Shown one piece after another: positions 13,340 to 21,703 of a DNA stretch of 64,000 bases (positions are counted from its first letter, which is position 1; each line of letters starts with the position of its first letter). The notes beneath the pieces were generated by a model that was not told where the DNA came from, searched no databases, and saw only the letters and a list, made by a program, of their open reading frames with translations. The DNA is from an uncultured Bacteroidales bacterium (GTDB taxonomy: Bacteria > Bacteroidota > Bacteroidia > Bacteroidales > UBA932), in assembly GCA_944322715.1 (NCBI GenBank), contig CALUPT010000003.1, forward strand, positions 62,001 to 126,000, given 5' to 3'. A program made the translations under genes and the position numbers.

Positions 13340-14643
13340 TCGTTCTGATGAAAATACTGCAGCTTGTGCTGGCTCTGTCCGTGCTCGTGCTGGTACATGA
13401 ACTCGGACATTTCCTGTTCGCGAAGCTGTTCAGGATACGGGTGGACAAGTTCTACCTTTTCTTCGATGCCGGCGGTTTCTCGCTGCTGAAATTCAAACCG
13501 AAAGGTTCGGACACCGAATACGGCATAGGGTGGCTGCCCCTTGGAGGCTACTGCAAGATTGCGGGAATGATAGACGAATCCATGGATACGGAATCCCTCA
13601 AAAAGGAACCGCAGCCATGGGAATTCCGGACAAAACCGGCATGGCAGAGGCTTTTGGTCATGTTCGGAGGCGTACTGTTCAACTTCATATTCGCAATCCT
13701 GCTGTATATCGGCATACTCGCCGGATGGGGAGAAAGCTATATCGCCAACCGGGGCAACAGCATCTATGTCAACGACCTGGCATACGAGATGGGATTCAGG
13801 AACGGGGACCAGATCCTCAGGTTCGATGACTATACTCCCGAAAAGTTCTACATGCTGCAGGCAGACCTGGCAAGACAGACCGCACGGAAGGCCACGGTGC
13901 TCAGGGATGGGGATACCTTGGACATATACATAGACCAGAACATGATAGGCGATGTGCTCAACACCCCTGGAATGTTCGACCTTGCCGTACCTTTCGTCAT
14001 AGAATCCGTAGCTCCGGACTCTCCCAATGCACGGGCCGGGCTGCAGAAAGGCGACAGGATAGTTGAAATCGCGGGACAGCCGATAACGTACCTGCAGGAT
14101 TCGAGACGGCTTCTCGCTGATATGTCCGGGACACAGGTGCCGGTGACAATGATAAGGGAGAGCGACACTGTCAGGATGTCCCTTCAGGTGGACACCCTCG
14201 GCAGGATAGGCGTGTACACGCAGCTTCCGGGCCTGAAGACAAGAGACTATTCCGTCATCGAGGCCATTCCGGCAGGATTCAGGCTGACATTCGACACGAT
14301 CGGAGGATACCTTCAGGACATAAAACTGGTATTCACCCCGAGTACGGAAGCCTACAAGTCGGTAGGTAGCTTCATCGCAATGGGGCAGATATTTCCCGGA
14401 GCATGGGACTGGTACAGGTTCATAAACATCCTCGCCCTGCTGTCCATTATGCTCGGAGTGATGAACCTGCTTCCTATCCCGGCGCTCGATGGAGGGCATA
14501 TAGTGTTCACCCTGTACGAAATGATCACAGGCCGCAAGCCGAGCGACAGGTTCCTGACCATCGCCCAGGCAATCGGGATGATACTGCTGTTCGGACTGCT
14601 GATCCTGGCTTTCGGCAACGACATAGGAAGGCTGCTGAGATAA
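13336..14643 (+). CDS. rseP: Site-2 intramembrane metalloprotease RseP
   Basis: M50B zinc protease that cleaves membrane-embedded substrates such as anti-sigma factors; 435 residues. The first transmembrane helix carries the zinc motif HELGH at about residue 22. A PDZ domain is readable in the middle (APDSPNARAGLQKGDRIVEI). The third metal ligand is in the C-terminal helix (NLLPIPALDGGHIVF). It follows dxr with an ATGA overlap, a frequent pairing. It may process FecR-type anti-sigma factors like the one at 60.0-61.1 kb; that link is inference only. Confidence 0.95.
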   Translation: MIVLMKILQLVLALSVLVLVHELGHFLFAKLFRIRVDKFYLFFDAGGFSLLKFKPKGSDTEYGIGWLPLGGYCKIAGMIDESMDTESLKKEPQPWEFRTKPAWQRLLVMFGGVLFNFIFAILLYIGILAGWGESYIANRGNSIYVNDLAYEMGFRNGDQILRFDDYTPEKFYMLQADLARQTARKATVLRDGDTLDIYIDQNMIGDVLNTPGMFDLAVPFVIESVAPDSPNARAGLQKGDRIVEIAGQPITYLQDSRRLLADMSGTQVPVTMIRESDTVRMSLQVDTLGRIGVYTQLPGLKTRDYSVIEAIPAGFRLTFDTIGGYLQDIKLVFTPSTEAYKSVGSFIAMGQIFPGAWDWYRFINILALLSIMLGVMNLLPIPALDGGHIVFTLYEMITGRKPSDRFLTIAQAIGMILLFGLLILAFGNDIGRLLR

Positions 14644-14686
14644 GGAGCCAGGGCATACGGATTACAATAAAACCTGATATAAAGAC

Positions 14687-15697
14687 ATGACCATGAAACG
14701 GATATTCTCATTGCTGACAGTTACCGCTGCGGCCATTGCCGCCGTATCGTGTACCTGTTCCCCGAAGAAAGCCCTGCTGCCTACGATAAGCGGAAAGGCG
14801 GGCGAAGTCGTCATAGTAATCGACAAGACAGACTGGGAAGGCGCAGTCGGTACCGAACTCAGGGACCTGCTCGCCAGCGACTGCCCTTTCCTGCCACAGA
14901 AAGAGCCGCTGTACACGCTTGTAGACATCGTTCCATCCGCATTCACCAATATATTCCAGATACACAGGAACATAATTATCGTGAACATAGGCAACGATGT
15001 GACCGAACCGGGCATTGTGTACAGGCAGGATGTCTGGGCACAGCCACAGTGCGTAATAAGTGTGAATGCCGTTGACAGTGACTCTGCCCTGCAGCTTATC
15101 AAAGACAACAGCAAAATCATACTCAATACGATAGAGCAGGCTGAAAGGGACAGGATCATCGCCAATTCGATCAGATATGAAGAGAGATCCATTGCCCCTG
15201 TAGTAAAGGGATTCATCGGAGGTTCGCCGCATTTCCCTACAGGATATTCGATCAAGAAACAGACATCCGACTTCATCTGGATAGAATATGCGACAACATA
15301 CGTCACACAGGGATTCTTCGTCTACAGGTATCCGGCCTCGGGCACGGCGGATGATTTCCAGGTCGGGAACATAGTGGCGAAACGGGATGAATTCCTGAAG
15401 GACAACGTGCCCGGAATGTTCGAGAACACATACATGACTACCAGCGACATCACCACTCCGGGTCTCGAATACATAAGGTACAAGGGCAGGGACTTCGCCG
15501 AAGTCAGGGGATACTGGGAAGTCCACAACGACTATATGGGAGGTCCGTTCATCTCGCATTCATTCTACAGCAGGGACGGGAAGGACATTATCGTCCTCGA
15601 AGGCTTCGTCTACGCGCCGAGGTACGACAAGCGGCACTATATGAGGGAGGTGGAGTCCATCCTGTACTCGTTCGAATGGGATGATACGGAAGACTGA
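14687..15697 (+). CDS. DUF4837 family lipoprotein
   Basis: Uncharacterised Bacteroidota family; 336 residues. The N-terminus (MKRIFSLLTVTAAAIAAVSC) is a lipoprotein signal with a cysteine at about residue 22. The body matches the general pattern of DUF4837 proteins (GEVVIVIDKTDWEG, LVDIVPSAFTNIFQIHRNI). Two start ATGs six bases apart are possible (14687, 14693). It is the last gene of the M23-dxr-rseP operon, 43 bases after rseP. The last three codons and stop lie inside a 70-bp sequence repeated on the far side of the insertion sequence. Function unknown; envelope location is inferred from the signal peptide. Confidence 0.82.
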   Translation: MTMKRIFSLLTVTAAAIAAVSCTCSPKKALLPTISGKAGEVVIVIDKTDWEGAVGTELRDLLASDCPFLPQKEPLYTLVDIVPSAFTNIFQIHRNIIIVNIGNDVTEPGIVYRQDVWAQPQCVISVNAVDSDSALQLIKDNSKIILNTIEQAERDRIIANSIRYEERSIAPVVKGFIGGSPHFPTGYSIKKQTSDFIWIEYATTYVTQGFFVYRYPASGTADDFQVGNIVAKRDEFLKDNVPGMFENTYMTTSDITTPGLEYIRYKGRDFAEVRGYWEVHNDYMGGPFISHSFYSRDGKDIIVLEGFVYAPRYDKRHYMREVESILYSFEWDDTED

Positions 15698-15757
15698 CAA
15701 GATTTTTCATCCCATACTGCAAAAATATTTTGTCGGAAAGAAAATATTACATACCTT
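15688..15757. repeat. Left 70-bp direct repeat flanking the insertion sequence
   Basis: This matches 17959-18028 at 62 of 70 positions without gaps, by my hand alignment. It covers the final codons and stop of the DUF4837 gene plus a promoter-like stretch (TTTTG-N19-TACCTT). The -7 box is broken at its last bases, exactly where the IS begins. It is best read as one copy of a long target-site duplication that has since diverged. Confidence 0.75.
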
Positions 15758-15761
15758 CTCA

Positions 15762-15773
15762 AGTTTGACACTT
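15762..15773 (+). repeat. Left terminal inverted repeat of the IS
   Basis: AGTTTGACACTT, the exact reverse complement of AAGTGTCAAACT found twice at the right end of the element. Only these 12 bases match perfectly; the bases outside differ (CTCA versus CTCGGT when read inward). Confidence 0.75.
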
Positions 15774-15799
15774 GTATTCATTGCAAACTGACATATTTC

Positions 15800-15847
15800 G
15801 AGGCTACAGACCGCTGTAATGGCGATTTGCAGCCTCAAGATTTTTTT
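15800..15847 (+). terminator. Inward-facing terminator-like hairpin in the IS left arm
   Basis: GAGGCT...AGCCTC with a loop of about 25 bases, then AAGA and a run of seven T on the plus strand. It would stop transcripts coming from the DUF4837 operon before they run antisense through the transposase gene. The 4-base gap before the T-run makes it a weaker candidate. Confidence 0.45.
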
Positions 15848-15864
15848 AGGATATGTAATGTTTT

Positions 15865-16005
15865 ATAGTTGTGATGGGGTGGACTTCGGTCCGGTACGCG
15901 CCTATGGCGCTATCCCTCCCATTGGCCCTGTTGGGCCAATAGGCCCCTCCCGTTCACGAAGTCACGGGCGACTACGCCGCCCGAAGTCCACCCCGTCACA
16001 ACTAT
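15865..16005. repeat. Large palindrome with nested hairpins at the transposase 3' end
   Basis: A 25-base arm (15865-15889) pairs with 15981-16005 at 24 of 25 positions, with one G-T pair in RNA. The 91-base interior holds further hairpins: GCGCC/GGCGC at 15898-15910, ATTGGCCC/GGGCCAAT at 15921-15940, and CCCGT/ACGGG at 15949-15968. The outer arm overlaps the transposase stop codon at 16002-16004, so the transposase mRNA would end in a long branched structure. It may protect or terminate the mRNA. No known RNA family was recognised. Confidence 0.75.
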
Positions 16006-17771
16006 CTGTCGCCATTATCCTCCTTTTTACGTTTTTTGGTCAACGATATGATGCTTCTCATCTGCTTCTTTGTGACTATCTGATAGTCCGTTCTAAAGCC
16101 TGCTGAGCCGTGCAGATGGTTTGTGAGATCTGTTCTTGTATAGGTAGGCACATACCCCTCTCCGTTGATACTCAGGAAGCTCATATCCTTCAGTGTGTCC
16201 AGGATTTCCCTTGTCGTGAAGTGCATACCACCTCTGTTTATCTTCTTTTCCAGATATCTATACAGCAGCAGTGACAGGAAGCATGTCAGGAAGTGGGCCT
16301 TTATCCTGTCATCCCGTTTCAGATATACCGGTCTTGCGTTAAGATCGCTCTTGGTAATACGGAAGTCATTTTCCACAATCCATCTTCCGCTGTTCATCCT
16401 TATTACCTCTTCCGCTGGACCTTCCAAGTCTGTACATATGCCGTAGAAGCCATCGTACAGCGCCTCCTGATCTATCATTTCCTGATTCAGAGAGTAACTC
16501 GTCACCTGTGCGAGTTCTCCGTCATTGGTACAATGTTCCGCTTTTATGAACCTCTTTGCATCGTTAGGGCTCTTGCGCTTCCCCGTATTCGCTTTGCCTG
16601 ATTCTAGAAGAGCCTGGGCTCTTTCTATCTGCCTGTTGCGGACATAGGACAGATAGTCTCGGTATTTGAACGAGAAGGTGACGATATAGCGTTGCTCAAG
16701 TGTTTCTCCGGTGGACATCTTTACCGGCTCCCAACGCTCTTTGTAAAAGAGGGTTTCATGACACTCCCTGGCATCAACTTCCGTCAGGTCATAGGTCTTA
16801 TCGGAGCCACGCATATGCCATTCTGACGTATCTAGAGCCCATTCCTGCAGTGTCTTGTTCATCTTCTTGACGGATTGAACCGTAATGAAAGACCTCTCGC
16901 TCACCGCATCATTCTTCCTGTTCTCGTATGATGACAGGCCTGCGTCGGTGCATACGATTATTTTGGATAACCCAAACTTCTCTTTAAGTATCTCCTCCAT
17001 AGGCTTGAGCGTGCTGGTCTCCGCCTTGTTCCCCGGCTCGATGCACATCGCAAGAGGAAAGCCATCTCTGTCCACAAAGAGTCCCATCTGAACTATAGGT
17101 AGTGGACGTCCCTCCTTACAGTGACCATATTGCACAAGGCCACCTTCCTCCTCCCACTCGAAGAAGTAGTTCGTCAGGTCATAATAAACAACACTTGTGT
17201 CGCGCTTCCCAAGTTTGAGGCTGCGCTTGTACACATCCGCCTGTATCTCATTGAACTCTGTCGCCAACAGACTGAGAGCTCGATAGACCTGATGGATATC
17301 CTCTTCCGGCTGTTCAAGGAACTTCCTGGCGTCTTCCAGTGACGACAGCTTGGAGCCGGGATACAGCAGACGAGTGTAAAGAAGGTGCGAAAGGATTTCG
17401 CTGAGATTGTACTTATTCTTGTGCTTCTTCTCGATTTTCTTGCAGATATAGTCCAGACCAAGCTCGTAATAGATATTCTGAAGGAACAGATAGCCGCCAT
17501 TGTAGCTGCGTTGCTCGTTTTTCTGAATAAAGACCGTTGGAGAGTACTCAACAATAACTTTTTTATTGCTTTCTTTCTCTGCAGCAGTTAGTTCTGCAAC
17601 ATATTTCTTTGCCTCACCAATCGGATCCTTATCACCAAAACGCTTCCGCAAGTCATATATGGTGCCCAAGCGCTCTATATTCTTGGTGGAACACTTGCCG
17701 GTTTCTGTTCGAAAGGACTTCTGAACATAGTAAAATGTATAATTCTTTGAATTACAAGATTTTAGTATCAT
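16002..17771 (-). CDS. IS1634-type DDE transposase
   Basis: Transposase of 589 residues, full length for the family. The DDE residues can be placed at YYDLTNYFFE (first Asp), VCTDAGLSS (second Asp) and GRWIVENDFRITKSDL (Glu, a YREK-like motif of the IS4 superfamily). No internal stop or frameshift is present, so the protein could be active. Start at the ATG at 17771. A TAnnTTTG-like box (TATATTTG, 17810-17803 on the minus strand) lies 31 bases upstream. The gene is bounded by the large palindrome at its 3' end and by an inward-facing terminator upstream of its start. Confidence 0.92.
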   Translation of the reverse strand: MILKSCNSKNYTFYYVQKSFRTETGKCSTKNIERLGTIYDLRKRFGDKDPIGEAKKYVAELTAAEKESNKKVIVEYSPTVFIQKNEQRSYNGGYLFLQNIYYELGLDYICKKIEKKHKNKYNLSEILSHLLYTRLLYPGSKLSSLEDARKFLEQPEEDIHQVYRALSLLATEFNEIQADVYKRSLKLGKRDTSVVYYDLTNYFFEWEEEGGLVQYGHCKEGRPLPIVQMGLFVDRDGFPLAMCIEPGNKAETSTLKPMEEILKEKFGLSKIIVCTDAGLSSYENRKNDAVSERSFITVQSVKKMNKTLQEWALDTSEWHMRGSDKTYDLTEVDARECHETLFYKERWEPVKMSTGETLEQRYIVTFSFKYRDYLSYVRNRQIERAQALLESGKANTGKRKSPNDAKRFIKAEHCTNDGELAQVTSYSLNQEMIDQEALYDGFYGICTDLEGPAEEVIRMNSGRWIVENDFRITKSDLNARPVYLKRDDRIKAHFLTCFLSLLLYRYLEKKINRGGMHFTTREILDTLKDMSFLSINGEGYVPTYTRTDLTNHLHGSAGFRTDYQIVTKKQMRSIISLTKKRKKEDNGDR

Positions 17772-17825
17772 ACTCTGCTTTATAAAGTATCACAATATAT
17801 TACAAATATAGAAATTAAATTTGAC

Positions 17826-17852
17826 AAAAAAAAGACTTTCAACAGAAAGTCT
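17826..17852 (-). terminator. Inward-facing intrinsic terminator ahead of the transposase
   Basis: Read on the minus strand: AGACTTTC, loop TGTT, GAAAGTCT, then a run of seven T. It lies between the IS right end and the transposase start (17771). It would stop transcripts entering from the tRNA side, a common way for insertion sequences to avoid read-through expression. Confidence 0.7.
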
Positions 17853-17957
17853 ATCAAATATTTACAAAATTTTATTTTTCAAGAAAGTGTCAAACTACCG
17901 AGAAAGTCTATCAAATATTTACAAAATTTTATTTTTCAAGAAAGTGTCAAACTACCG
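17844..17957. repeat. Two exact 57-bp tandem copies containing the IS right end
   Basis: 17844-17900 and 17901-17957 are identical. Each unit ends with AAGTGTCAAACTACCG, which includes the 12-base terminal inverted repeat, so the element has two consecutive right ends. The unit also contains one arm of the adjacent terminator hairpin. In one frame it reads as a 19-residue repeat, but no gene is supported. Confidence 0.9.
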
Positions 17958-17958
17958 A

Positions 17959-18028
17959 GGAAGACAAGTAAGATTTTTCATTCCTTACTGCAAAAATATT
18001 TTGTCATAAAGAAAATATTACATACCTT
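17959..18028. repeat. Right 70-bp direct repeat flanking the insertion sequence
   Basis: Counterpart of 15688-15757, with 8 mismatches in 70. Four adjacent mismatches fall where the left copy has the DUF4837 stop codon, which is not under coding constraint here. This copy keeps the complete promoter that serves tRNA-Glu. Confidence 0.75.
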
Positions 18029-18030
18029 TG
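17999..18030 (+). promoter_or_regulatory. Promoter of tRNA-Glu and rpsT
   Basis: TTTTG (17999-18003), a 19-base spacer, then TACCTTTG (18023-18030): a consensus Bacteroidota promoter. It lies 38 bases before the tRNA and starts within the right flanking repeat. rpsT has no separate promoter that I can see. Confidence 0.8.
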
Positions 18031-18068
18031 CACTCCCTTTCGGTGTATCATACCTACGGGAAGGATGC

Positions 18069-18140
18069 GGTGGGTTCGTATAACGGTTAGTACTCAAGAT
18101 TTTCATTCTTGCAATAGGGGTTCGATTCCCCTACCCACTA
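18069..18140 (+). tRNA. tRNA-Glu (anticodon TTC)
   Basis: A cloverleaf can be drawn: acceptor GGTGGGT/ACCCACT, anticodon stem CAAGA/TCTTG with loop TTTTCAT (anticodon TTC), and T arm AGGGG-TTCGATT-CCCCT. CCA is not encoded. It precedes rpsT by 23 bases and is likely co-transcribed with it. Confidence 0.95.
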
Positions 18141-18163
18141 CGAAAAATATAAAAAATAAAATA

Positions 18164-18418
18164 ATGGCAAACCACGCATCAGCAGAAAAGCGTTATCGCC
18201 AGAGCGAAAGACGCCGGTTGCATAACAGGTATTATGCAAAGACTACAAGAAACGCCATCAGGGCGCTGAGGAACACTACAGACAAGGGTGAGGCAGCAGC
18301 GAATGCACCCAAGGTCTATGCAATGATCGACAAGCTCGCAAAGATCGGAGTGATCCACAAGAACAAGGCAGCGAACCTCAAGAGCGGAATTGCAGTCTAT
18401 ATCAACAAACTTTCATAA
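18164..18418 (+). CDS. rpsT: 30S ribosomal protein S20
   Basis: 16S rRNA-binding ribosomal protein; 84 residues, the usual size. The N-terminus [20 protein letters not shown] and the basic helical body with [18 protein letters not shown] at the end match S20. The ATG at 18164 is the start; the frame is open further upstream only because it runs through the tRNA. It lies between two tRNA genes. Confidence 0.96.
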
Positions 18419-18455
18419 CGAAAGCCAGCCCTTTTAAGGGTTTCTTATAGCTACT

Positions 18456-18485
18456 GAAGCTGCTTCACCGACAGCAGCTTCTTTT
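18456..18485 (+). terminator. Intrinsic terminator after rpsT
   Basis: GAAGCTGCT, 8-base loop, AGCAGCTTC, then TTTT. It lies 37 bases after the rpsT stop and just before tRNA-Pro. Confidence 0.8.
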
Positions 18486-18492
18486 CATTGGA

Positions 18493-18568
18493 CGGGATGT
18501 AGCGCAGTTGGTAGCGCACTACGTTCGGGACGTAGGGGTCGGGCGTTCGAGTCGCCTCATCCCGACCA
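18493..18568 (+). tRNA. tRNA-Pro (anticodon CGG), CCA encoded
   Basis: Acceptor CGGGATG/CATCCCG, discriminator A followed by an encoded CCA, anticodon stem CTACG/CGTAG with loop TTCGGGA (anticodon CGG), and T loop TTCGAGT. 76 bases including CCA. Confidence 0.95.
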
Positions 18569-18576
18569 AGACCAAG

Positions 18577-18613
18577 GCAGCCATCTGAAATTCAGGTGGC
18601 TGCTTTTCTTTTC
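18577..18613 (+). terminator. Intrinsic terminator after tRNA-Pro
   Basis: GCAGCCATCTGAA pairs with TTCAGGTGGCTGC (one G-T wobble), followed by TTTTCTTTT. It separates the tRNA from the regulator gene downstream. Confidence 0.85.
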
Positions 18614-18642
18614 AGTATTTTTTCAATGCAGGATCCGATATT

Positions 18643-19224
18643 ATGGGAAAGATATACATAAAGAATATGGTGTGTCCGCGCTGCATTATGTCTGTGAGGG
18701 AAATATTCCGACGTAACGGGATAGAGCCGGAAGATGTGCAGCTCGGTGTGGTCACAGCATCTTTTCAGGAAACGGAGGGCAGGGACAGGGAGAGCCAGAC
18801 AGTCCCCGATACCATAAGGAGAGATCTGGAGGCCTGCGGCTTCGAGATAATCGATGACAGGAGAGCCAGGATTGTGGAGGAAATCCGCACCGGCGTGATA
18901 GAATACATACGCAATCCCGGGCTACGGCAGATGAAGCTTTCGGAATTCCTGCAGGAGAAATGCATGAAGGAATACAGCGCTCTCAGCAAGCTCTTCACCG
19001 GGATGCGCGGCATGACGATAGAGAAATACTGCATTCTCCAGAAAGTAGAATATGTAAAGGAGCTGCTTTTCTACGGAGAACTGAGCATAAGCGAGATTGC
19101 TGACCTTCTGCACTATTCAAGCACAGCTCACCTGAGCTCCCAGTTCAAGTCTGTCACAGGCCTTACCCCGACACAGTTCAGGCAGCTGAAGGCTCCGTCC
19201 CTCTCCCCTATCGACACGATATAA
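18643..19224 (+). CDS. AraC-type regulator with N-terminal HMA-like metal-binding motif
   Basis: Probable metal-responsive transcription factor; 193 residues. The N-terminus (KIYIKNMVCPRCIMSV) carries a CxxC (C11, C14) in the context of a heavy-metal-associated fold spanning about residues 1-75. The C-terminal part (about 90-185) is an AraC helix-turn-helix domain: SISEIADLLHYSSTAHLSSQ followed by FKSVTGLTPTQFR. It lies 118 bases upstream of a copper-type P1B ATPase on the same strand, so copper (or silver) sensing and control of the pump is the natural inference. The metal has not been shown. Confidence 0.85.
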   Translation: MGKIYIKNMVCPRCIMSVREIFRRNGIEPEDVQLGVVTASFQETEGRDRESQTVPDTIRRDLEACGFEIIDDRRARIVEEIRTGVIEYIRNPGLRQMKLSEFLQEKCMKEYSALSKLFTGMRGMTIEKYCILQKVEYVKELLFYGELSISEIADLLHYSSTAHLSSQFKSVTGLTPTQFRQLKAPSLSPIDTI

Positions 19225-19266
19225 ATCAAATCCATAATAATATAACAGGTCTGACACTATTCTTCA

Positions 19267-19274
19267 TACCTTTG
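19267..19274 (+). promoter_or_regulatory. Candidate -7 box for copA
   Basis: TACCTTTG, 68 bases before the copA start, in the gap after the regulator gene. No good -33 box is seen 19 bases upstream, which would fit a promoter needing an activator. Confidence 0.4.
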
Positions 19275-19342
19275 AATCCGGTGTATGGCCGTCCGCCGGA
19301 AACCGGCTGGGCCGGAATTGAAACGATCAAATCGACAAGGAT

Positions 19343-21703
19343 ATGAAGAAAATACAGACATTCCCTGTAACGGGACTCGGATGCGCAGGATGCGCAGCCA
19401 GAGTGAACAGGATTCTTGGCAGCCAGCCCGGAGTGACATCAGCCAATGTCAACTTCGCATCATCAACGGCACAGATAGAATACGACACGGAGAAGTGTTC
19501 TCTTGAAGACCTCAGAGCCGCCGTACAGGAGGGAGGGTACGACATCCTGACAGACGATGAGGACGATTCTGAAAAAGAGGCCGAGGACGAACATGCCAGA
19601 CAGTATTCTGCACTAAAGACACAGACGGTTGGAGCGGTCGCCCTGGCCGTTCCCATCACCGTGCTGGGTATGACTCTGATGGACATCACCTGGGCGGGAT
19701 ATGTCACTTGGATACTGGCGACAGTCTCTGTATTCTTTTTCGGCAGGCGGTTCTATGTCAATGCTTGGAAACAGTTGAAACACGGCTCTGCCAATATGGA
19801 TACCCTGGTGGCCACAAGCACAGGCATAGCATACCTGTTCAGCCTCTTCAACCTTCTTTTCCCGGACTTCTGGCTTTCACGTGGAATCGAGCCGCATCTA
19901 TATTTCGAAGCAGCCAGTGTCATCATAGCATTCATCCTGCTCGGCAGGCTGCTTGAAGACAGGGCAAAGAGGAAGACGACTGATGCCATCCGTAAACTTG
20001 CCGGGCTGCAGCCGGAGACCGTCACTGTCATCAGGAAGCCTGACGCAGGCCCGGCCTGCCCGGCATATGAAGCCGGCAAAGGCATGTCACCTTCCGGGAA
20101 CGAATCCGGAACGGTGGAAATGACCATACCTGTCGGGCAGGCCATGCCAGGAGACACCATCATCGTCAAGCCCGGAGAAAGGGTGGCACTGGATGGCACG
20201 GTCAGCGAAGGGGAATCGTACGTGGACGAAAGCATGCTCACCGGAGAGCCGGTTCCGGCCCGCAAGACGGCAGGGGACAAGGTATATGCCGGGACAATCA
20301 ACGGCAGCGGGGCATTCAGGTTCATCGCGGAGAAGACAGGGAAGGACACCGTCCTCTCCCGGATAGTGCAAATGGTACAGGATGCACAGGGGAGCAAGGC
20401 TCCCGTGCAGAACACGGTGGACAAGGTGGCGGGGATATTCGTACCGGCCATAATCGGCATAGCCATCCTCGTCTTCGCCTGCTGGTGGATATTCGCGCCG
20501 GAAGAGGGGTTCGTGCACGGGATACTGTCCATGGTCACGGTCCTCATCATCGCCTGCCCGTGCGCTCTCGGATTGTCGACACCTACAGCCATCATTGTAG
20601 GAATCGGCAAAGGGGCCGAATACGGAATATTAATCAAGGATGCGACATGTCTGGAAACCGCAAGGAAGGTGGACACTGTCATCCTCGACAAGACAGGGAC
20701 CATTACGGAAGGACACCCGGAAGTCACGGACCAGTGCTGGAAGCGGCTTTCAGGCCGCGGACGGGATATCCTCTACAGCCTGGAGAAACTGTCCGGACAC
20801 CCTCTGGCGGAAGCCATCGTGTCTGCGACAGGAGGCATGACGGACAGTTCCGGCCCTGATGCAGTGAGGGAAGATGCGCAACAGGAGACGCAAAGGCATC
20901 CGGTCCCGATAACCGGCTTTGAAAACATCCCGGGGAAAGGGGTAAGGGGAAATGCGGCAATTCCAGACGCAGAAACCGACGGGGACAGCATGACATATTA
21001 TGCCGGGAATATCAGCCTGATGGAAGAAAACGGCATCAGCATCGACATGGAACTGAAAGTACAGGCAGACAGATGGCAGCAGGAAGCGAAGACCGTAGTA
21101 TGGTTTGCCGACCGGAATTCCGCGATAGCCGTCATGGCCATTGCCGACAAGATAAAGGAAACCTCGGCCGAAGCCATCGCCATGATGCACGGAATGGGGA
21201 TAGAGACATGGATGCTTACCGGAGACAATAGCGAATCGGCCGCGGCTGTCGCACGGCAGGCAGGGATAACCCGTTTCAAGGCGGGACTGCTTCCACAGGA
21301 CAAGGCAGAATTCATAAAACGTCTGCAGGCAGAAGGACATACCGTAGGCATGGTCGGAGACGGAATCAACGACAGTGCCGCCCTCGCACAGGCAGACCTG
21401 AGCATAGCAATGGGGAAAGGGAGCGACATCGCAATGGACACGGCCATGCTGACCATCCTGTCCTCCGACCTGCTCAAGATTCCACAGGCCGTCAGACTGT
21501 CAAGACTGACAGTCCGGACAATACGGCAGAATCTTTTCTGGGCGTTTATATATAACCTGATTGCAGTCCCTGTCGCTGCAGGAATCCTCTATCCTGTCAA
21601 CGGCTTCCTGCTCAATCCAATGATTGGAGGTGCGGCGATGGCGTTGAGCAGCGTCAGCGTAGTATCCAACAGCCTCAGGCTCCGCAGGCGGAAGCTCCAG
21701 TGA
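19343..21703 (+). CDS. copA: Copper-type P1B ATPase
   Basis: ATP-driven Cu(I) (possibly Ag) exporter of the inner membrane; 786 residues. An N-terminal HMA domain has GLGCAGCAARV (C14, C17). Other P-type motifs in order are MLTGEPVPARK (actuator TGE), ACPCALGLSTPTAI (CPC, C405-P-C407, the Cu site in the membrane), DKTGT (phosphorylated D449), GHPLAEAI (HP, P1B class) and MVGDGINDSAALAQADLSI. A stretch of about 30 residues between the actuator segments (around residues 232-262) is longer than in compact CopA proteins. The gene ends 3 bases from the convergent HTCS gene. The upstream HMA-AraC regulator supports a copper role. Confidence 0.92.
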   Translation: MKKIQTFPVTGLGCAGCAARVNRILGSQPGVTSANVNFASSTAQIEYDTEKCSLEDLRAAVQEGGYDILTDDEDDSEKEAEDEHARQYSALKTQTVGAVALAVPITVLGMTLMDITWAGYVTWILATVSVFFFGRRFYVNAWKQLKHGSANMDTLVATSTGIAYLFSLFNLLFPDFWLSRGIEPHLYFEAASVIIAFILLGRLLEDRAKRKTTDAIRKLAGLQPETVTVIRKPDAGPACPAYEAGKGMSPSGNESGTVEMTIPVGQAMPGDTIIVKPGERVALDGTVSEGESYVDESMLTGEPVPARKTAGDKVYAGTINGSGAFRFIAEKTGKDTVLSRIVQMVQDAQGSKAPVQNTVDKVAGIFVPAIIGIAILVFACWWIFAPEEGFVHGILSMVTVLIIACPCALGLSTPTAIIVGIGKGAEYGILIKDATCLETARKVDTVILDKTGTITEGHPEVTDQCWKRLSGRGRDILYSLEKLSGHPLAEAIVSATGGMTDSSGPDAVREDAQQETQRHPVPITGFENIPGKGVRGNAAIPDAETDGDSMTYYAGNISLMEENGISIDMELKVQADRWQQEAKTVVWFADRNSAIAVMAIADKIKETSAEAIAMMHGMGIETWMLTGDNSESAAAVARQAGITRFKAGLLPQDKAEFIKRLQAEGHTVGMVGDGINDSAALAQADLSIAMGKGSDIAMDTAMLTILSSDLLKIPQAVRLSRLTVRTIRQNLFWAFIYNLIAVPVAAGILYPVNGFLLNPMIGGAAMALSSVSVVSNSLRLRRRKLQ

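What the first reader, a model, noticed from the sequence alone, without database searches (positions are those of the whole stretch)
15688..18028. IS1634-type insertion between 70-bp direct repeats that restore both a gene end and a tRNA promoter
The 70 bases ending at the IS left edge (15688-15757) recur right after its right edge (17959-18028) with 62/70 matches. The repeat contains the DUF4837 stop codon and the full tRNA-Glu/rpsT promoter. Insertion with a long duplication would have left the DUF4837 gene complete on one side and the promoter complete on the other, so it was harmless despite landing between two essential-looking units. IS1634 and IS1549 are known for unusually long, variable target duplications; the divergence (8 mismatches, 4 adjacent at the now useless stop codon) suggests an old event.
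Basis: partly seen in the sequence, partly recalled or inferred. Interest (0 to 1): 0.7.

Follow-up and report, generated by a model that had tools for sequence, protein, structure and literature searches.

The report
Insertion sequence that targets core promoters
A mobile DNA element in a bacterium sits exactly at the edge of a predicted transfer-RNA gene promoter, between two copies of that promoter region, and many of its relatives sit at the same spot of other predicted promoters, so the long duplication it makes likely keeps the gene it lands on working.

Summary
The repeat is real: a 71-bp target duplication (15687-15757 / 17958-18028, 62/71) abutting an IS1634-family element (15758-17957). 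In 30 of 34 related loci one promoter copy lies between DUF4837 and tRNA-Glu; in 4 no tRNA-Glu was found. 8 of 17 copies of this IS with both flanks, the window included, have duplications, of 45-329 bp; 9 show none.

The position is not luck. The IS 3' end abuts TAnnTT, the hexamer of the Bacteroidota -7 box TAnnTTTG, in 25 of 34 copies (background 0.28%). TTG lies 19-20 bp upstream in 15 of 25 (control 20 of 304). In all 8 duplicated copies the far copy continues with TG, completing the box (7 of 8 perfect), and a gene or ORF follows closely in 7 (tRNA-Glu, tRNA-Cys, rplU, folK among them). In Bacillota plasmids and phage records the end abuts a TATAAT-like hexamer in 5 of 8. Six distant IS1634 relatives make long duplications, none there.

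Best reading: a promoter-targeting IS subgroup whose long duplication re-creates the promoter it hits; guidance by promoter recognition is inferred. 'Old event' is not supported: a 2139/2143 identical IS lies in another species.

The parts
15758..17957 (-). IS1634-family insertion sequence, 2200 bp (2143 bp plus a 57-bp terminal tandem duplication); 3' end at 15758, transposase-proximal 5' end at 17957
   Evidence: Ends fixed by comparison with other copies whose duplications abut at distance 0/0; 2139/2143 identical to the copy in L035
16002..17771 (-). transposase, 589 aa, DDE type
   Evidence: NF033559 transpos_IS1634 353 bits, cutoff 100; PF01609
15687..15757 (+). target duplication copy 1 (DUF4837 side): holds the DUF4837 stop and a predicted promoter whose -7 box is cut by the IS (TACCTT|CTCA)
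17958..18028 (+). target duplication copy 2 (tRNA side): promoter region up to TACCTT, continues with TG
18000..18030 (+). restored predicted sigma-ABfr promoter TTTG-N19-TACCTTTG of tRNA-Glu/rpsT
   Evidence: sequence; consensus TTTG / TAnnTTTG as stated in PMC7366714; one TAnnTTTG box at this place in 30 of 34 related loci
15762..15773 (+). terminal inverted repeat, 3' end (AGTTTGACACTT)
17942..17953 (+). terminal inverted repeat, 5' end (AAGTGTCAAACT); a second copy lies at 17885-17896
17844..17957 (.). perfect tandem duplication (2 x 57 bp) of the terminal 57 bp of the IS, ending exactly at the IS end
   Evidence: absent from the near-identical copy L035
14687..15697 (+). DUF4837 gene, left complete
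   Evidence: PF16125 305.6 bits
18069..18141 (+). tRNA-Glu (ttc), gene behind the restored promoter
18164..18418 (+). rpsT, ribosomal protein S20
   Evidence: PF01649

Best explanation
This is an IS1634-family insertion sequence of a subgroup whose 3' end abuts the last base of the -7 hexamer of predicted promoters (TAnnTT|TG) in most copies, and whose long duplication likely arises when the second strand is cut at a variable distance upstream, so that the promoter it lands in would be re-created on the far side. Shown by comparison: the position of the 3' end, the duplication of 45-329 bp in 8 copies, the far copy running on with TG, the close downstream gene or ORF in 7 of these 8. Inferred: that the transposase is guided by promoter recognition (the hexamer itself, or the RNA polymerase-bound, melted promoter); that the IS 3' strand end joins the template strand at the downstream edge of the hexamer and the other end joins the opposite strand 45-330 bp upstream; that gap filling makes the duplication. 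Predicted, not measured: that these sequences are active promoters. Consequence, inferred: insertions in front of essential genes are tolerated. In the window the two copies later diverged, likely by recombination with a related allele rather than by age.
For: (1) 3' end abuts TAnnTT in 25 of 34 distinct copies against 314 of 111,032 background positions. 33 of the 34 come from Bacteroidota records or genomes of this genus, one (L051, a miss) from a MAG labelled Clostridiales. (2) TTG 19-20 bp upstream in 15 of the 25, against 20 of 304 control TAnnTT sites in the same host DNA and 5 of 31 TAnnTTTG sites (Fisher 8e-4). (3) Duplications abut both IS ends at distance 0/0 in L039 84, L042 228, L043 45, L050 329, L053 90, L057 186 bp, and in the window, 71 bp; L080 has 67 bp abutting an extra outer IS end. 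In all 8 the far copy continues with TG (control 29 of 304), giving TAnnTTTG in 7 and TAATATTG in L050. (4) A gene or ORF follows in the same direction within about 110 nt in 7 of 8: tRNA-Glu, tRNA-Cys, rplU, folK, a short-chain dehydrogenase, a DUF5118 gene, and a 170-aa ORF without a Pfam match. (5) In 18 copies with no duplication or only the 5' end known, 17 TAnnTTTG boxes within 450 bp point away from the IS and 5 towards it; with TTG at 18-22 bp 7 and 0; about 1.2 are expected per direction. (6) Bacillota plasmids and phage records: the 3' end abuts a hexamer with at least 5/6 of TATAAT in 5 of 8 distinct ends (L121, L162, L164, L165, L139; background 548 of 38,778). L121 reads TTGACA-N17-TATATT| with a 308-bp duplication in front of a PTS lactose gene; none of 548 control sites has a 6/6 -35 at 16-18 bp. 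(7) Six more distant IS1634 relatives with duplications of 35-155 bp: 0 of 6 at TAnnTT.
Against: 9 of 34 3' ends are not at TAnnTT (L047, L048, L050, L051, L052, L079, L127, L135, L137) and 10 of the 25 lack TTG at 19-20. Of 17 copies with both flanks, 9 show no duplication, long or short, in the flanks held; three of these have a flank of only 330-506 bp. The 5 boxes pointing towards the IS are themselves more than expected (P 0.008), so AT-rich intergenic flanks explain part of test (5); in six duplicated copies 6 boxes point away, as they must for most, and 3 towards, 2 of these with TTG. L162 has a 13-bp duplication that does not span a -35 box; L138 and L140 are not at a -10 hexamer; apart from L121 the -35 boxes are poor or, in L139 (4/6), no better than 82 of 548 controls. 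The host phylum of L139 and L140 (phage-labelled faecal scaffolds) is not stated. L121 runs on with GT, not TG. No transcription start was measured. Bare sequence recognition is not excluded by any test here.
Confidence: 0.82

Rival explanations
1. Sequence-only targeting: the transposase reads a short AT-rich motif (TAnnTT in Bacteroidota, TAnnnT more widely), and promoters are hit only because they contain it.
For: The hexamer is the strongest signal (25 of 34). TAnnnT covers both sets (6 of 8 in the plasmid and phage records). 10 of 25 TAnnTT targets lack TTG at 19-20.
Against: TTG at 19-20 in 15 of 25 targets against 20 of 304 ordinary TAnnTT sites and 5 of 31 TAnnTTTG sites; a full TTGACA at exactly 17 bp in Carnobacterium; a gene or ORF closely downstream in 7 of 8.
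Confidence: 0.4
2. Selection only: insertion lengths and places are random, and we see the survivors in which the duplication happened to spare a promoter.
For: All 8 duplications outside the plasmid and phage records are 45 bp or longer, enough to span the core promoter of about 29 bp.
Against: Selection cannot bring the 3' end to one base of the hexamer in 25 of 34 copies, since insertions elsewhere would survive too. Distant relatives away from such sites also have long duplications (35-155 bp), so length is not only a product of selection at promoters.
Confidence: 0.07
3. The two 70-bp copies existed before the IS (tandem promoter), or the IS entered by recombination between repeats.
For: The copies differ at 9 of 71 positions, while the other duplications are 99-100% identical.
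Against: 30 of 34 related loci have one promoter box between DUF4837 and tRNA-Glu, and none was seen with two. The copies abut the IS ends exactly, as in other duplicated copies.
Confidence: 0.03
4. The divergence between the copies reflects an old insertion.
For: 9 of 71 positions differ, 4 of them adjacent at the stop codon.
Against: The IS is 2139/2143 identical to a copy in another species and its ORF and ends are intact. Four adjacent changes fit an indel or a recombination tract better than point mutation. The second copy also ends in frame (GAC AAG TAA), as an allele of the gene might.
Confidence: 0.15

Closest known systems
IS1634 family (formerly IS1549), IS4-related DDE insertion sequences
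   Same: Transposase profile NF033559 far above cutoff. Ends fit the published C-----YT pattern (table in PMC2266710, passages read): CTCAAGTT and CGGTAGTT.
   Different: Published typical duplications are 5-6 bp, and two further members are given with 6 bp, ISPfe2 (PMC3281130, passages) and ISGka5 (PMC8024623, passages). The word promoter does not occur in the main text of PMC2266710. Here duplications are 45-329 bp in 8 copies and the 3' end sits at the -7 hexamer. IS length 2143 bp against 1500-2000.
IS1549 (Mycobacterium smegmatis) and IS1634 (Mycoplasma mycoides) with long variable duplications
   Same: Long, variable direct repeats, 8-514 bp as quoted in PMC2266710, which adds that no mechanistic model had been proposed. 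Mycoplasmopsis gallopavonis relatives here also show long repeats (read by eye).
   Different: One end of the repeat is fixed at a promoter element here. For the Mycoplasmopsis copies no such link was evident, in very AT-rich DNA. The two original papers were not held, so their target sites could not be compared.
Yeast Ty3 (and Ty1), integration at RNA polymerase III promoters
   Same: Works like: insertion at a fixed place next to the start of transcription, tRNA genes among the targets (PMC5911963, passages read).
   Different: A retrotransposon, not a DDE insertion sequence. Targeting factor known (TFIIIB for Ty3), here unknown. Short against long duplication (Ty3 length recalled).
IS1202-family / ISAjo2 elements at dif sites
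   Same: An insertion sequence with fixed distance and orientation to a functional chromosomal site (PMC10132070, start of abstract in the search listing).
   Different: Target is a recombination site, not a promoter.

Membership tests
IS1634 family | Transposase of the family | tested here: met
   NF033559 353 bits, cutoff 100
IS1634 family | DDE catalytic residues | tested here: met
   Invariant D198, D276 and E467 in a 17-sequence alignment; assignment as the triad is from the motif context, recalled
IS1634 family | Terminal inverted repeats beginning C-----YT | tested here: met
   CTCAAGTT and CGGTAGTT (pattern)
IS1634 family | Typical direct repeat of 5-6 bp | tested here: not met
   45-329 bp in 8 copies, none of 3 bp or more in 9 others; the family's two name-givers are stated exceptions with 8-514 bp, so this does not exclude membership
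IS1549/IS1634 long-repeat type | Long, variable direct repeats abutting the IS | tested here: met
   8 of 17 copies with both flanks
IS1549/IS1634 long-repeat type | Target sites like those of the two name-givers | not testable with these tools
   Original papers not held; six distant relatives show 0 of 6 at TAnnTT
Promoter-targeting element (Ty3-like in behaviour) | Fixed insertion position relative to the promoter | tested here: met
   25 of 34 at TAnnTT, 15 of 25 with TTG at 19-20; promoters predicted, not measured
Promoter-targeting element (Ty3-like in behaviour) | Physical contact of the recombinase with the transcription machinery | not testable with these tools
   Needs biochemistry

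The most novel reading that the evidence does not exclude
A bacterial counterpart of Ty3: this IS1634 subgroup homes on housekeeping promoters by engaging the RNA polymerase-bound, melted promoter. It joins one end at the downstream edge of the -7/-10 hexamer in two phyla with different promoter grammars, and uses its long duplication to hand the host a fresh promoter, so it can live in front of essential genes at no cost.
Probability: 0.4. Interest if true: 0.88.

Novelty: new variant of a known kind. Interest (0 to 1): 0.74.

Why it matters
Why some IS1634-family elements make long, variable target duplications was stated in 2008 to be without a mechanistic model (PMC2266710, passage). Here one end of the duplication is anchored at a core promoter element, which turns the question into a testable one: what makes the upstream cut variable, and is RNA polymerase the anchor? 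It also suggests how a mobile element can occupy promoters of genes that are usually essential (tRNA-Glu, tRNA-Cys, rplU, folK) without killing the host. The transposase has many relatives: 7999 proteins at E <= 0.001 in one search that scored only 8000 candidates (how many belong to this subgroup was not tested). If the rule holds, IS copies could be used to mark promoters in uncultured bacteria.

Tried and rejected
Chance repeat: rejected (best other match 35/70). TAnnTT being part of the IS: rejected, because the far copy carries it too, with host-specific upstream sequence, and IS-free relatives have it natively. Viral contigs: two scans gave no relative. RNA families: tRNAs only at 14500-19500, none at 15600-18100 up to E 0.1. 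Structure: the AlphaFold model of the transposase is of middling confidence (mean pLDDT 69.7) and the fold search gave no match at E <= 0.001 (best piggyBat transposase, 4.6e-3), so nothing is built on it. Generality to the whole family: not supported (0 of 6 distant relatives at TAnnTT; Mycoplasmopsis copies unclear). The idea that the 57-bp tandem repeat includes target DNA was dropped once the IS ends were fixed. Continuation with TG holds for 8 of 8 duplicated copies but not for L121 (GT); the p-value printed used 9 of 9 by mistake and is not used. In one search the script read a neighbouring copy's end for L164, and I had typed 5 of 8; the right end is and the count was redone. Short duplications in the 9 copies without a long one were looked for last: none of 3 bp or more.

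Rows left out of the 34: second fetches of the same contig; L130 (an end-like motif not on the 3' side of its transposase piece); distant elements (L088, which is the same locus as L135, and L092-L120); copies or fragments without a 3' end in the DNA held or without the end motif (L040, L049, L054, L055, L061, L085, L125, L128, L129, L131-L134); and matches for which no locus was returned. L135 (39-49% identity) was kept and counts as a miss. Of the eight plasmid and phage ends, L166 and L167 were left out as repeats of L163 and L165, and L122 is the same copy as L164.

Literature: ten searches (one search was on the promoter consensus). No row listed reported this targeting, but most listings were cut at 10-25 rows. 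Passages, not whole papers, were read of PMC2266710, PMC7366714, PMC3281130, PMC8024623 and PMC5911963.
Full report
WHAT WAS CHECKED. The repeat is there. It is 71 bp long, 15687-15757 and 17958-18028, with 62 matches, and the best other 70-mer of the window matches at 35/70. Between the copies lies one insertion sequence, 15758-17957, the only copy found in its genome, with a 589-aa transposase of the IS1634 family (NF033559). Its ends reach 4 bases beyond the 12-bp inverted repeats. This was fixed from other copies, in which the duplication abuts these ends with no base between.

THE EMPTY SITE. The genome is of the same genus as a genome (G285) whose IS contig has the length and IS position of a Candidatus Cryptobacteroides merdigallinarum record. 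I examined 34 related DUF4837 loci: the 29 relatives given as loci (54 of 60 relatives had a match) and 5 more. In 30, tRNA-Glu follows DUF4837, and each has exactly one TAnnTTTG box in the gap. 29 gaps are 42-92 bp and one, L158, is 359 bp. In 4 no tRNA-Glu was found downstream in the DNA held. So the single-copy state is taken as ancestral and the window's pair as a target duplication.

OTHER COPIES. One scan of species genomes gave 27 loci. Searches of the genus found a match, fragments and distant relatives included, in 59 of 400 genomes and in 27 of 180 of the more complete ones. Of 17 copies with both flanks, the window included, 8 have a duplication: 45, 67, 71, 84, 90, 186, 228 and 329 bp. 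In L080 (67 bp) an extra 134-bp piece of a related IS end lies at the outer edge. 9 show none in the flanks held, neither long nor of 3 bp or more.

WHERE THE IS SITS. Reading towards the IS 3' end, the host DNA ends in TAnnTT in 25 of 34 distinct copies; the background in the same host DNA is 314 of 111,032 positions. The last T is present in 33 of 34. One of the 34, L051, is from a MAG labelled Clostridiales. TAnnTTTG at -7 and TTTG near -33 is the consensus of the main Bacteroidota sigma factor (stated in PMC7366714, passage read). TTG stands 19-20 bp upstream of the hexamer in 15 of 25 copies, against 20 of 304 control TAnnTT sites and 5 of 31 TAnnTTTG sites. In all 8 duplicated copies the far copy runs on with TG, so that TAnnTTTG is whole again in 7 and TAATATTG in one. 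Behind it, in the same direction and within about 110 nt, lie tRNA-Glu, tRNA-Cys, rplU, folK, a dehydrogenase, a DUF5118 gene and a 170-aa ORF without a Pfam match (7 of 8; L050 has none).

AN INDEPENDENT TEST. If the duplication always sits on the 5' side of the IS, copies without a visible duplication (for instance after recombination between copies), or with only the 5' end known, should still have a promoter pointing away from them. In 18 such copies there are 17 TAnnTTTG boxes within 450 bp pointing away and 5 pointing towards the IS. With TTG at 18-22 bp the counts are 7 and 0. About 1.2 per direction are expected, so even 5 is high (P 0.008): intergenic flanks explain part, the direction the rest. 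14 of 18 copies have at least one box pointing away. In six duplicated copies, 6 boxes point away, as they must for most, and 3 towards.

A SECOND PHYLUM. Bacillota use TTGACA-N17-TATAAT (recalled). Plasmid records hold relatives 36-50% identical to the window's transposase and phage records hold three that are 46-54% identical to the Carnobacterium one. The 3' end abuts a hexamer with at least 5/6 of TATAAT in 5 of 8 distinct ends, and TAnnnT in 6 of 8. The host phylum of two of these records, L139 and L140, is not given. In Carnobacterium maltaromaticum the site is TTGACA-N17-TATATT| with a 308-bp duplication, and the far copy lies 45-55 nt before the start of a PTS lactose IIA gene. L139 has TGGACG at 17 bp, a match that 82 of 548 control sites reach; the others have poor -35 boxes. 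A Ligilactobacillus plasmid copy has a duplication of only 13 bp, and the S. suis phage copy one of 47 bp, not at a clear -10.

NOT THE WHOLE FAMILY. Six more distant IS1634 relatives in this order have duplications of 35, 63, 70, 76, 88 and 155 bp, but none ends at TAnnTT. Most of the other distant loci examined showed no direct repeat of 14 bp or more. Two members elsewhere are reported with 6 bp. The long duplication is therefore found beyond this subgroup, and the promoter anchoring marks the subgroup itself (5' end CGGN, 3' end mostly CNNN, then about GTTTGACA).

HOW IT LIKELY WORKS. In the usual DDE scheme the joins imply that the IS 3' strand end was joined to the template strand at the downstream edge of the hexamer, and the other IS end to the opposite strand 45-329 bp upstream, and that gap filling doubled the segment between (inferred). 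The near side loses TG and so the -7 box. The far side keeps all. Because even the shortest of the 8 duplications (45 bp) spans the core promoter of about 29 bp, the gene would keep its promoter. What anchors the first join is inferred: the hexamer alone or the polymerase-bound, melted promoter. The -33 distance in Bacteroidota and the -35 of the Carnobacterium site favour promoter recognition, but sequence recognition alone is not excluded.

AGE. The IS differs from the copy in C. merdigallinarum by 3 mismatches and 1 gap in 2143, while the two window duplicates differ at 9 of 71 positions, and the other duplicates are 99-100% identical. Divergence is therefore a poor clock here. The second copy reads GAC AAG TAA in the DUF4837 frame, as another allele's end might, so recombination of one flank with a related strain is the likelier cause (inferred).

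VERDICT. What appears new is the anchoring of a long-duplication IS at core promoters; no row in the listings of ten literature searches reported it (listings capped), and the two original papers on long duplications could not be read.

Noticed in passing
window 17844-17957: The terminal 57 bp of the IS are perfectly duplicated in tandem, the unit ending exactly at the IS end; the near-identical copy in L035 has one unit.
   Followed up: partly
window 17833-17852: A terminator-like hairpin with a T run just inside the transposase-side end, reading into the IS; the run TTTTTTTGTCAAAT recurs near the same end in L080 and in the Lactobacillus, Ligilactobacillus, S. suis phage and one human-faecal phage-labelled copy. 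It could shield the transposase from outside transcription.
   Followed up: no
window 15865-16005: A 25-nt inverted repeat (96%) with 91 nt between the arms, in the IS next to the transposase stop and before the IS 3' end; no RNA family matches.
   Followed up: no
L094 951-985 and L120 1039-1101 (strand of the transposase): Distant IS1634-family copies whose target duplications seem to contain a stem followed by a T run, like intrinsic terminators (read by eye); other branches of the family may favour other transcription signals.
   Followed up: no
L121 2607-2721: One copy of the 308-bp duplication in Carnobacterium carries an extra insert of about 125 bp with inverted ends, probably a small mobile element.
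   Followed up: no
L080 1233-1366: A 134-bp piece of a related IS 5' end sits between the duplication and the inner IS end, as if one copy had replaced or entered another.
   Followed up: partly
L148, L150, L151 (Mycoplasmopsis gallopavonis): IS1634-type copies with long direct repeats of different length (at least 50 bp in L151, seemingly longer in L148 and L150; read by eye); no clear promoter link in this AT-rich DNA.
   Followed up: partly
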